In this document: piece by piece, positions 27,591 to 54,300 of the stretch
Layout: each line of letters starts with the position of its first letter
Numbering within the stretch: position 1 is the stretch's first letter
NCBI GenBank assembly: GCA_903813345.2
Contig: CAIIXF020000007.1
Location: forward strand, 17,595,564 to 17,659,563
Length of the DNA stretch: 64,000 nt
From: Owenia fusiformis
Lineage: Eukaryota > Annelida > Polychaeta > Sabellida > Oweniidae
Reading direction: 5' to 3'
The notes under the pieces: model-generated
The model's database searches: none
Told to the model about the DNA's origin: nothing
The model's input: only the letters and a program-made list of their open reading frames with translations
Translations under genes and position numbers: made by a program

Positions 27591-30500
27591 TTACGAGCTG
27601 TGGGCAGGGAGAACCTTCCCAGTACAGTTGCCAAATCCAACTCTATAACCATCTCCATCGCAGTAACCTGGAATAAAATTTATTAAAATACTTTGAAAGG
27701 CACTCAACTGTATATATTATTTTTCGTTTAAGCAAAAAACATAGTATATTTATAGGATATCCTATAATTTTGAGGAATATCATTTTTATCTACGAGGTGA
27801 TATTGATATCTGCACGAGAGAGCGAAGCGAACGAGTGCATATATCAATATCACCGAGTAGATTAAAATGATATTCTGAAAAAATCATAGGATGTTCTTAT
27901 TATCCTACACTTACAAGGAGTGTACTAAATGTATAATATCATTGCAAAATGAATTTCATGCCAAATAGAGTCAATTTGGCGGGAAATCAACAAGCGGAGT
28001 ATATCGTCACAATATCCTCCGCATATTGGGGTTTCCGGAGTATATCGTCACGATACCCTCCGCCCGGAGTATATCGTGACGATATCCTCCGGATATTCAT
28101 TTTGCCCATAAATATCAAATTTATTTTTTAATGTTATTATACATTTAGTACACTAAGTGTAGGATAATAGTTGATGGAACACATATTAGAAAAAAGCTAA
28201 GCTTAAATGATTGAATTTCTCCTGGAATGCTCATTAATTTGTTCAAAAATGTATTCTACTCATTCACTTCACAGTGTAGTACAAGATATAACAAAGAAGT
28301 GACTTACCAGTTATAATAACTTCATCTCCATCCTTTAGAAACTTGCGAGTAACACCATTGCCAAGGTCAATAGTCTTAGTGCCTTTCCAACACAGTTCAA
28401 GCATAGAGCCATATGACTCCTCCTCCTGAAATAAAAAAATAAATCAATAAATAACAAACATTGCAGCTGTAGCCTTCAAAATCCTATCAATACTCAATCT
28501 AAATATTTCTGCATCATACATTGGAATATAACACAAAGAAAACATGTGCGCCAAATATTTCTAATCTGAATCTGATTGTGCTCAAAGTTGAGATGAATGA
28601 CATCTACTTACAGGTCCACTTATAGTGCCAGATGCCATCAGATCTCCTGGTTTAACATTACAGCCTGAGACAGTATGGTGGGCTAGTTGTTGCTTCATTG
28701 TCCAATACATGTTCTACAACAGATAAGTGTACTCATATATTCTACAATAAACAAGTCTATATTTTACAGTCTGAGACAGTATGGTGGGCTAGTTGTTGCT
28801 TCATTGTCCAATACATGTTGTAAGACAGACAAGTGTACTTGTATATTCTACAATAAACAAGTCTTGCAAAAGATGAGTGTACATGTATGTTCAACAACAG
28901 ACATGTATGTGTTCACCAGAGTATGTGCTACAATAGACATGACATGTCAGACAAAGTATGCTCTACAATAGACAAGTGTATAATGTTCAAAAACAATCTA
29001 CAAGTTCATATTCTACAACAGAGAAGTTTAAGCTCTAAAGACAAATGTGTATGTTCCACTTTAGGCAAATATATGTTCTACTATAGGCAAGTACATGTTT
29101 TACAATTTTCAATTACATATTCTACAATTATACATTTAACAATAGACAAGTAAATGTTCTACAACCGATAAGTGTATGTTCTTCAATATATCTATTTACA
29201 TGTTTTGCTATGTTTTTCAATCAACACGCATGCAGCTAAAATACATCTTTAAATTACATGGCAAGTTTAAGGTTTAAAGAAAAAAATCAACAATAAGGAA
29301 TAATGTACATGTAACTTACTTTTAAATTAGATTTACAGATTGTTGCAGGCTGACTAAGTCCCTCGGCTGAAAATACAAGAAATGAATTAAACAAAAATCA
29401 ATCAATAGACACACAGTGACATATGTCACCCTTGAAGAACAAAATGGTCACCCTGTAGCTCAACATGCCTAAAACATAACCAGATCTTGGGACAAATCTG
29501 TATTTGTATCTGTAAAACCTAAAAGTGGGCAAATGCAATGAAAATGGCTCTAATGGTGAATCTTTGAATAAGAGAATCAGGTGATTGACCTGGAAATTCA
29601 AAGGGCAAAGGTCACTCAAAGATCCACCTTTGGCCTTTGATACAGTGTCCGTAAAATTCGAAGGGCAAAGGTCACTCAAAGATCCACCTTTGGCCTTTGA
29701 TACAGTGTCCGTAAAATTCAAAGGGCAAAGGTCACTCAAAGATCCACCTTTGGCCTTTGATACAGTGTCCGTAAAATTCAAATGGCAAAGGTCACTCAAA
29801 GATCCACCTTTGGCCTTTGATACAGTGTCCGTAAAATTCAAAGGGCAAAGGACACTCAAAGATCCACCTTTGGCCTTTGATACAGTGTCCGTAATTCAAT
29901 ATGTCTTTTTACTGCTACTGAAAACCCCTACTAAAACAATAGCTTTTGAAATGGAAAATCTGACATTAACATTACAGTACATTCATTCTCTATGAAACTG
30001 AAAAGTTATCATCATTGCTTATAGGTACACGTACACATATTAGTTGGATATGTTAACAATTTTGCAAATAAATTATTTAAATTGCTGACTTTTCAGTCCA
30101 TTCTGCATTAATTAATTTTGCATTAAGGCAAATTTAGCCTTTGTTCTCTCGAAGCATTATTGAAAATATAACATACCATAACAACTCTCAAAGTTTCTAT
30201 CACATACACTCCTTTTCATACAGAAAAATCACTGAATTTTCATATATTTCTTTACCATTTATGGCTACTTCCAGCTGAATGTCAAAGGAGTAAGGATCCT
30301 CGTGTACAAGGTATGGTAGAGGCTTTGGGTCCTGTACTCGGTTAGGTTTGACAAATGGCATTAAGGCATCCATGGGGACCACCCAGGGGGAGATTGTCGT
30401 TCCAAAGTTCTTGCCTAAAAAGGGACCCAATGGGACATATTCCCATTTCTGGATATCTCGAGCTGGAAATGAAAGGTTAGACAATTGAACTATCTAAAAC

Positions 30501-51300: not shown

Positions 51301-54300
51301 CCACGTGATCTCTCACTGGTCCCCACGTGGCCCGTTTTGGTCCATTAGATCATGACGCCATAATGCCAAAATGTTTTGTTATTTGTTTACACAACAATCC
51401 TATGGTTGCTGTGACGTTGTGATTACTAAGAAACCAATAAACCAAAGCTATATTTTGTATATGACGTTACTAATCACGTGGGGGCCAATTTGTTTGATCA
51501 GTTAGTTTTATTTCGTTATCTATGAATGTTAGAAGTTATCTAACATTTATTTTATAATGGCTATCGCAAGAACTCTACGTTGGGCTTACAATGGAAAAAA
51601 ACGCATTTTTATAGCTGCAATTTGAGAAAAGCTATTTCAGTTGTCCTTTAAACAGCAATTTCTACATGATTCCTTATAAGGAAATGAGGGTCATAAGAGT
51701 GGAAGTAGCTATTTGTAACAAAATATTTTCAGCTCTTGCATCAGGTTAGAAAATTTGTGAGTCCCAAGGACGCAATTTTTTTACCAAAACACCTTTCAGT
51801 TTTTGATTTCTTGCCGCGAATTTAAAACGGAAGTAAACGTTAAGTACGGACTGAATAAATGCATGTTCGTTCATTCGACTATGGATACATTTTATTTCAT
51901 GAATAACCTAATATTTGTTTCTGAATAGGAAAAACTGTGGCGTGTCATGGTTTCAAATCTAAAAATAAACAAAGTCGAAAAAATTCGAGAGAATCATGAT
52001 TATTTGTAAATATTCAACATGTTGAGCCTTATTTACGATTCAAATAAAGGTGAGAGATCATAATTATTTGTTTTTGTTAGGTATCGTTGTAAACACATTG
52101 TAGTATTGACCTAAAAATAATTTGCGTCCAAAAAACAGAAATATTTTCAATTTTTGCGTCCTCCAAATTATTTAACATGTACGGGACGCCGTTAATGCAA
52201 GCCCTGTATTTTTGTATGTGCAAGAAACAAGACATAATGTTTTCAAATGTTTTTTTTCACCTAGGATTTGCTAGAATCTGGGGATACCCTGTAGGCATTC
52301 TTGCTAACAATGGAGTCCTGTTCGCTGAATCTGCACTAAAGGTAAGTATATTTCAGAGTTCATAACTGATCTGCTTTAGGTGTTAGTTAAGGAATTCAGG
52401 TGTTGTTATTAGACCACATGCATACTTTGCTGTGTGATCCTAAAAATTAAGATATTATATATTCTTTTGGGTCACCCTCTACATTACATTAATCAAAGAC
52501 TTTTTGCATTCCTGCTCATCTTATTGAATTGATGACATCAGCAATGGTATCCGGGATACCAGTTGAAGTTACAGTTTTACAGTCATTTTGTCGAGTCATC
52601 AAAAAAATGAGTATATATTTAGAGTAAAAAGTACAAAGGAACAAACACTCATTAACTGCACTAAAGATTGTTTGATTATTTAAATTTCAGGGTACTCACT
52701 TTATTGAACTTTGCTGTAAGAGGAATATCCCCCTTCTCTTCCTGCAGAATATTACAGGTAAGAGAAGTTGCACTTTGAAGGATTATTAGAGCTCCATTAT
52801 TATTAGAATATCATTGCATACAATGTAACAATACAGTATAATGTACTGTCAAAGAAATTTTGTTAATATTATGCTCATACTGTTCTAGGGTTTATTCTAA
52901 GTACACATGTACTGTAGCAGGGTTTATTATAAGTACAAATGTACTGTTGCAGGGTTTATGGTTGGAAGAGCAGCAGAGGCTGGAGGTATAGCCAAGCATG
53001 GAGCCAAGTTGGTCACTGCAGTAGCGTGTGCTAAGGTGCCAAAGATCACAATGATTGTGGGGGGATCTTATGGTGCCGGCAACTATGGCATGTGTGGAAG
53101 AGCATATAGGTAAGTTTTCAACATACATTCTGGTTTGGTTCAGAGGATGAAAAGCAAGGTAAGTAAAACCATCTACGGGCATTTCAGTGAATTATAGAAT
53201 GGCAAAATATACATTTGAAAATTCCTACATACCTCTGTTACTGATTCCATGTTTTCAAAATTCAAGACTGATTTATTTTTACCATTTTTTTATGATTTAT
53301 GGCGTAATATATTACCGAAAATTTTATTCTGTTCTTTGTTAAAATCTTTGGCAATGGCCAGAATACAATTTGAGGTCATATATTTGACATAAATCATAAA
53401 ATCGAGGTTTTTGTTACGATTCTAATATGATAAACAGACAAGAAACACAACTTTTTGCATTTATGAATTTTAGCGGTCATACACACTCCAATATAGACCA
53501 GTAAATCAATTGTTCAAGCTATTGTGACATAACGTATCACATTAGAATTCATCCTATTTTCTTTTGTTGTAAAAATGGTTAAGTTTTTCCAAAAGGTTTT
53601 TAAATAGTTGAAAAAACAGATAAATAAAAATAATACTAATTGCAGCCCCAGGTTCCTGTACATGTGGCCTAACTCTAGGATATCTGTGATGGGAGGAGAG
53701 CAGGCAGCTACAGTTCTAGCAACAGTCAAGAAAGCACAAGTTATGAAAGAGGGAAAACAGGTGAAATGATCTTACAATTCAGTTCTCTTCATTTGTTGGG
53801 GATTGTAGTGTGATACACAGCAGAAAAGTGAATAGAAATCAAACATTGGTAAATTGATTATAAAATTTCAGTGGTGATTTTGAGGAACATTCTGCAGAAG
53901 ATTGACATTTGGACTGCTTTGATTAATAACCAATACAATTTAGTTATGCAGATGAGTCAGATGACTGTGAAAGTAAGCACATTGTTTATTAAACTGTTGA
54001 TCCCACCCATTAAATTATCTTTGATGCCTTCATATAATGAAGTTGAAAAAGATGTAGCATCATTTTTTAATGTGCTGAATTCAATTTGAAGATTCTTGGC
54101 TGATTATGATTTCATGAAAACGACTATGATATAATCATGGGATAAGTGCTTATTTACAGGTCAGGATTTATATAGGCTTTATTCTTTGGTATGTTATCCC
54201 TCCGATGGTCTGGAAACATAATTATTATCCTTCAGAATAAAACCTACAGTGATTCCTTCCAAGTCAAAAAACCCTTTATGTGTTTTCTATGTATATATTT

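What the first reader, a model, noticed from the sequence alone, without database searches (positions are those of the whole stretch)
28612..52965. Proposed general process: splice-junction-seeded tandem repeats
Two donor arrays, one acceptor array with an exon copy, and one acceptor triplet in two neighbouring genes all have the splice junction inside the repeated unit. Chance seeding of minisatellites would rarely include junctions so often. One idea is that slippage or R-loop-linked repair at junctions starts the arrays, or that only units preserving a splice site are tolerated next to an exon, because any boundary then still splices. I know of no named class for this.
Basis: inference. Interest (0 to 1): 0.8.

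Follow-up and report, generated by a model that had tools for sequence, protein, structure and literature searches.

The report
Splice-junction minisatellites ("mirages") in two genes
Four short repeat arrays in two neighbouring animal metabolic genes really are built from copies of an exon-intron boundary, but this kind of repeat already has a name ("mirage", from lancelets) and is best explained as ordinary repeat growth that the splicing machinery ignores.

Summary
In 32 mapped introns of FECH, FAH and MCCC2, four loci have a tandem unit that copies the junction of their own intron: MCCC2 intron 3 (29 bp, about 60 copies, donor), intron 4 (44 bp, 23 copies, donor; first copy is the exon end), intron 10 (32 bp, 3 copies, acceptor), FAH intron 9 (degenerate 22-bp acceptor array plus a 106-bp exon-head duplication). 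Of 64 junctions, only these four have strong copies elsewhere in their intron.

The class is named: amphioxus "mirages". Enrichment over chance seeding is modest and depends on the null (P 0.004 to 0.1; 9 to 17 arrays; chosen after the fact). Selection for splice-site-bearing units is not supported: splice columns are not clearly better conserved than the rest, and 32 of 32 decoy sites modelled give premature stops. The three MCCC2 intron positions are shared with human, so they are not new introns.

Most likely: neutral tandem duplications across a boundary, expanded into the intron while purifying selection holds the exon-adjacent copy. Species unknown; low G+C (34%) argues weakly against Branchiostoma.

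The parts
45862..45963 (+). MCCC2 exon 3 of the mapped model; its end ...GTGTCAGG|gtaagttgagacata is the junction copied by the 29-bp array
   Evidence: Homology and GT-AG model; the junction maps to human c.383|384 (numbering)
46296..48058 (+). 29-bp donor array in MCCC2 intron 3, about 60 copies, beginning about 330 bp after the donor; unit = exon tail CATAGGATGTGTGTCAGG + donor GTGAGTTAAGA
   Evidence: TRF; copy alignment: 55 of 60 copies keep GT, 33 of 60 keep GTRAGT, 46 of 60 keep CAGG before it
48511..49523 (+). 44-bp donor array, 23 copies; first copy = last 31 nt of MCCC2 exon 4 (48414-48541) + 13 nt of intron
   Evidence: TRF; 22 of 23 copies keep GT, 16 of 23 keep TTAGGTATGT; same ends as human c.384-511 (numbering)
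52878..52959 (+). 32-bp acceptor triplet ending at MCCC2 exon 52953-53109; unit = intron end + AG + first 7 exonic nt GGTTTAT
   Evidence: TRF, exon overlap of 7 nt
28612..28713 (-). FAH exon 9 of the mapped model (human c.961-1062, human boundaries partly recalled), the exon beside the acceptor array
   Evidence: Homology, GT-AG model
28658..28864 (-). 106-bp x2 duplication: acceptor plus head of FAH exon 9 (56 nt of the array is exon); the upstream copy has lost its AG (CTTAC|AACATG)
   Evidence: TRF, sequence, exon overlap
28714..29190 (-). Degenerate ~22-bp acceptor array (AACATRTACTTGTCTATTGTAG, consensus by eye) filling most of FAH intron 9
   Evidence: Autocorrelation peak at 22 bp (0.429, next 0.352); junction match of one consensus rank 1 of 64, of another rank 4 of 64
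29594..29894 (-). 60-bp x5 array in FAH intron 8, NOT junction-derived (counter-example)
   Evidence: rank 16 of 64; 211 of 300 shuffles as good
32009..32027 (-). One displaced copy of the FAH intron 5 donor, with AT in place of GT (possible fifth case, weak)
   Evidence: (score 33, span -3..+16)

Best explanation
These are mirage-like minisatellites. A short tandem duplication (slippage or unequal exchange; inferred) happened to span an exon-intron boundary. The exon-adjacent copy is held by purifying selection and stays the working splice site (inferred from the intact reading frame); the copies on the intron side are free to drift, multiply and be exchanged in blocks. They are tolerated because the spliceosome normally uses the exon-adjacent site (exon definition, general knowledge; not shown here). 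No active seeding by splicing is needed.
For: Units match their own junctions. Of the 18 TRF intervals I gave, none lies wholly inside one of the 35 exons and the three that touch an exon continue into the intron. The 44-bp array begins with the exon end, whose frame is intact. Splice columns are not clearly better conserved than the rest: 0.906 against 0.908 in the 29-bp array (16 of 29 rotations as high) and 0.971 against 0.940 in the 44-bp array (6 of 44 rotations as high). Block exchange: best self-match of the 29-bp array is at 698 bp (24 units and 2 nt), 0.885 against 0.838 for the next unit. Non-junction arrays sit in the same genes (60-bp x5). The number of junction arrays is within reach of chance when introns were short before expansion (P 0.045 to 0.098), and counted by positions junctions are not enriched. 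The same kind is reported in amphioxus as not interfering with regular splicing (PMC3087553, passage).
Against: Four of 9, 11 or 17 arrays is above expectation under every array-level null I tried (expected 0.81 to 2.00), with P as low as 0.0036. Many decoy donors are not weak: in the 29-bp array 25 of 54 pair with U1 at least as well as the authentic site (median -7.4 against -9.5 for the authentic site and -7.3 for all 32 donors), and in the 44-bp array 18 of 22, the authentic copy included, so why they would be ignored is not fully explained by site strength. No transcripts are available. The 29-bp array is separated from its junction by about 320 bp of sequence without the repeat, so its origin by simple tandem duplication needs a later insertion or a displaced copy.
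Confidence: 0.75

Rival explanations
1. Active seeding: splicing-linked R-loops or repair at junctions start the arrays.
For: 4 of 11 arrays include a junction, expected 0.82 with present intron lengths (P 0.004); the 29-bp array is strongly G-skewed on the coding strand (+0.59).
Against: The other arrays lack that strong skew (-0.28, +0.29, +0.03). P rises to 0.045-0.098 with pre-expansion intron lengths. Counted by positions there is no enrichment (4 of 64 junctions, 168 of 947 interior anchors).
Confidence: 0.1
2. Selection keeps only units that carry a splice site, because any copy can then serve as boundary.
For: Most copies keep GT (55 of 60; 22 of 23); in the 44-bp array splice columns are slightly better conserved (0.971 against 0.940).
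Against: The difference is absent in the 29-bp array and matched by 6 of 44 rotations in the 44-bp array. Decoy use destroys the reading frame: 21 of 21 decoy donors modelled in the 44-bp array, 2 of 2 upstream acceptors of the triplet and 9 of 9 modelled in FAH give premature stops. The upstream FAH exon copy has lost its AG.
Confidence: 0.05
3. The arrays act as decoys or U1-binding platforms that tune output through unproductive splicing or protection from early polyadenylation.
For: Many donors pair with U1 as well as the authentic site (25 of 54; 18 of 22 with the authentic copy included); every modelled decoy use is unproductive (32 of 32).
Against: Splice columns not clearly conserved above the rest; only 33 of 60 copies of the 29-bp array keep GTRAGT. 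No expression data.
Confidence: 0.06
4. The introns themselves arose by tandem duplication (intron gain).
For: The 44-bp unit carries AG|GT; that model is proposed for other genes (PMC3087553, passage).
Against: The MCCC2 junctions coincide with human exon boundaries c.383|384, c.511|512 and c.1216|1217 (passages, numbering), so these introns are old. For FAH, c.1062+5G appears as a term in listed papers (listing only); c.960|961 is recalled.
Confidence: 0.02

Closest known systems
Mirages of amphioxus (Adh3, globins BflGb6 and BflGb9, troponin C, PGBD5)
   Same: Minisatellite-like tandem duplications spanning exon-intron boundaries, at donors and acceptors; units 10-72 bp in Adh3 and 150-160 bp in globins; several in one genome (PMC3087553 and PMC3902484, passages seen).
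   Different: Here arrays of about 60 and 23 copies in MCCC2 and an acceptor array in FAH, in an unnamed animal whose window G+C (34.3%) is below that of B. belcheri (41.3%, PMC12373286, passage). Length polymorphism, somatic instability and normal splicing are reported for amphioxus but untested here.
Internal tandem repeats at exon-intron boundaries of human genes in segmental duplications (PMC2812944, passages seen)
   Same: Expanded minisatellite units, average 30 bp, some at exon-intron boundaries.
   Different: The boundary cases there were tied to novel introns and alternative transcripts; here the MCCC2 introns are old and no transcripts are known.
Tandem-array intron models (Rogers 1989; Venkatesh 1999; Zhuo 2007; Gao and Lynch 2009; seen only as citations)
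   Same: Tandem duplication of sequence with AG/GT.
   Different: They explain new introns; the MCCC2 introns are shared with human.

Membership tests
Mirage (boundary-spanning minisatellite) | Tandem repeat unit spans the exon-intron boundary | tested here: met
   met for all four loci as sequence; in the 29-bp case the array is displaced about 330 bp from the junction it copies
Mirage (boundary-spanning minisatellite) | Both donor and acceptor boundaries affected | tested here: met
   Two donor and two acceptor loci
Mirage (boundary-spanning minisatellite) | Regular mRNA splicing is undisturbed | not testable with these tools
   No transcripts; modelled decoy use gives premature stops in 32 of 32 cases
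Mirage (boundary-spanning minisatellite) | Length polymorphism and somatic instability | not testable with these tools
   One sequence only
Mirage (boundary-spanning minisatellite) | Found in a cephalochordate (where the name has been used in the papers seen) | tested here: inconclusive
   Species not named; window G+C 34.3% against 41.3% for B. belcheri
Intron gained by tandem duplication | Intron absent from relatives | tested here: not met
   The three MCCC2 intron positions are shared with human; FAH only partly checked (listing)

The most novel reading that the evidence does not exclude
In this (probably non-cephalochordate) lineage splice junctions are preferred birth places of minisatellites, so that mirages are a general animal process rather than a lancelet curiosity, driven by something about junction DNA or its transcription.
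Probability: 0.12. Interest if true: 0.65.

Novelty: new member of a known kind. Interest (0 to 1): 0.35.

Why it matters
It gives four clear cases in two neighbouring metabolic genes, three of them in introns shared with human, which separates mirage growth from intron gain. If the species lies outside the cephalochordates, mirages are wider spread than the papers I saw say. Arrays of dozens of donor-like sites, many pairing with U1 as well as the true site, are also a natural test of how the spliceosome picks the exon-adjacent site.

Tried and rejected
Whole-genome test: no genome held. Rfam: 0 matches at gathering score. The stretch 45985-46300 between the intron 3 donor and the 29-bp array has no other good copy in the window (best other E 0.056). 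Seed microhomology for the 29-bp unit: a 4-nt run of matches (CATA) at offset 29, judged by eye no better than chance, not tested. Age gradient in the 44-bp array: Spearman -0.28, P 0.21. Counting positions instead of arrays: 168 of 947 interior anchors against 4 of 64 junctions have a good copy in the same intron, so by that measure junctions are not enriched; 135 of the 168 lie in the introns of the two long MCCC2 arrays. Pfam on 10 further ORFs: one astacin hit above cut-off, one match below its cut-off, eight without. Species: not identified; a B. lanceolatum paper gave no G+C figure in the passages seen (PMC11907188).

Papers: 10 searches, of which 20, 22 and 45 asked about other things. 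I opened passages of seven papers (PMC3087553, PMC3902484, PMC3495011, PMC12783039, PMC2812944, PMC11907188, PMC12373286). Among these, boundary-spanning minisatellites under the name mirage were in the two amphioxus papers only; the earthworm paper PMC12783039 has intronic minisatellites, with no junction copy in the passages seen. Most subscription papers are not held. The founding mirage paper (Canestro 2002, PMC117041) is not held and is known here only through papers that cite it.

Rows dropped: one partial copy of each array (61 to 60, 24 to 23); one of the 22 decoy copies of the 44-bp array was not matched by the pattern, and FAH acceptors were sought by four patterns only; 54 of about 60 copies of the 29-bp array matched the donor pattern.

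Full report
What is there. The window is animal DNA (inferred from its genes; G+C 34.3%) with three genes I could map by homology: FECH on the minus strand (12271-17234, partial), FAH on the minus strand (27591-38889) and MCCC2 on the plus strand (44425-54671, N-terminal exon not found). FAH and MCCC2 query proteins align to solved FAH and MCCC2 chains in one stretch each (FAH residues 1-294 of 297; MCCC2 1-480 of 481); FECH rests on a 48-residue query in the PDB search and tblastn with a recalled human sequence. The 35 exons give 32 GT-AG introns, 22,561 bases in all.

The four loci. (1) MCCC2 intron 3: about 60 copies of a 29-bp unit (46296-48058) whose sequence is the end of exon 3 with its donor. 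The array starts about 330 bp after that donor. (2) MCCC2 intron 4: 23 copies of a 44-bp unit; the first copy is the last 31 nt of the exon plus 13 nt of intron. (3) MCCC2 intron 10: three copies of a 32-bp unit with the acceptor and the first 7 exonic nt. (4) FAH intron 9: a degenerate 22-bp acceptor array over most of the intron, and a 106-bp duplication that copies the exon head; the upstream exon copy has lost its AG.

Is the similarity real? Each of the 64 junctions (20 nt either side) was compared with the rest of its own intron: four score 36 or more, with 0 of 100 shuffles as good, and they are these four. FAH intron 5 donor follows with 33. I also compared 13 unit consensuses, covering all 11 array loci of TRF score 50 or more inside the 32 introns (FAH intron 9 counted as one locus with three consensuses), with 64 junction windows. 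Five consensuses, from the four loci, match their own junction best with 0 of 300 shuffles as good; two of these arrays contain the junction copy, so that test is partly circular for them. One further FAH 22-bp consensus is weak (rank 4 of 64, 14 of 300). The seven from other loci show no best alignment across their own junction (19 to 300 of 300 shuffles as good).

Is the frequency more than chance? With present intron lengths 0.82 junction arrays are expected among 11 and 4 are seen (P 0.0041; units of 20 bp or more, n = 9, expected 0.81, P 0.0036). With the intron length before expansion the expectation is 1.68 (P 0.047; n = 9, 1.66, P 0.045). With a lower TRF threshold, 17 loci: expected 0.98 (P 0.010) and 1.85 (P 0.076). 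Counting FAH intron 9 by its 106-bp unit: expected 1.22 (P 0.021) and 2.00 (P 0.098). The pattern was chosen after it was seen, in one window, so this is suggestive at most. Counted by positions the junctions are not enriched: 4 of 64 junctions against 168 of 947 interior anchors.

Are splice sites in the copies preserved? No clear sign of it. In the 29-bp array the nine splice columns average 0.906 identity and the rest 0.908 (16 of 29 rotations as high); in the 44-bp array 0.971 and 0.940, with 6 of 44 rotations as high. Many decoys are not weak: 25 of 54 donors in the 29-bp array pair with U1 at least as well as the authentic one, though their median (-7.4) is weaker than it (-9.5) and near that of all 32 donors (-7.3); in the 44-bp array 18 of 22, the authentic copy included. 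Using them would be harmful: 21 of 21 decoy donors modelled in the 44-bp array, 2 of 2 upstream acceptors of the triplet and 9 of 9 modelled FAH acceptors give premature stops. Donors of the 29-bp array were not modelled one by one, but reading past the exon 3 donor meets TAA in the next codon (sequence; stop visible).

Age of the introns. The MCCC2 junctions coincide with human c.383|384, c.511|512 and c.1216|1217: PMC3495011 lists c.383+1, c.384-2, c.512-1 and r.1073_1216del (passages); numbering by the recalled human sequence. Human c.1073-1216 (144 nt) is split here into 77 + 67 nt. FAH exon 9 corresponds to human c.961-1062; c.1062+5G occurs in listed papers (listing only), the rest is recalled. 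So at least the three MCCC2 arrays grew in old introns.

What is known. [quoted passage not shown] the papers name Adh3, globins, troponin C and PGBD5, describe length instability, and report that they do not seem to interfere with regular splicing (PMC3087553, passages; PMC3902484, passages). Human genes in segmental duplications also have expanded repeats at exon-intron boundaries (PMC2812944, passages). G+C of B. belcheri is 41.3% (PMC12373286, passage), so this window is probably, not surely, from another lineage.

Mechanism. Shown: unit-junction similarity, extension into the intron, no clear extra conservation at splice columns, block structure (best offset 698 bp), unproductive decoys in the models. 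Inferred: birth by slippage or unequal exchange, tolerance through use of the exon-adjacent site. R-loops are not a shared feature: coding-strand G skew is +0.59 (29 bp), -0.28 (44 bp), +0.29 (32 bp) and +0.03 (FAH).

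Noticed in passing
58533-59039 and 62610-63049: Two arrays of about 180-bp units whose consensuses look, by eye, like reverse complements of each other, about 3.6 kb apart; possibly parts of one transposon.
   Followed up: no
3122-3516 and 43588-43838: 131- and 138-bp tandem units that look, by eye, like the same dispersed element in opposite orientation.
   Followed up: no
29594-29894: 60-bp x5 array in FAH intron 8, 97% matches; 60 is a multiple of 3, and it is open in a frame on each strand.
   Followed up: partly
32009-32027: Displaced single copy of the FAH intron 5 donor (score 33, z 7.6, only 3 exonic nt, GT changed to AT).
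   Followed up: partly
52265-52757: Human MCCC2 c.1073-1216 (144 nt) is split by an extra intron into 77 + 67 nt.
   Followed up: partly
30256-30844: Two FAH exons (153 and 207 nt) each seem to join what are two exons in human (human boundaries recalled).
   Followed up: no
8277-8549: Astacin metalloprotease fragment (Pfam PF01400, E 3.2e-26).
   Followed up: no
27770-28150 and 33260-33460: Stretches with inverted repeats that look like small non-autonomous transposons (read by eye).
   Followed up: no
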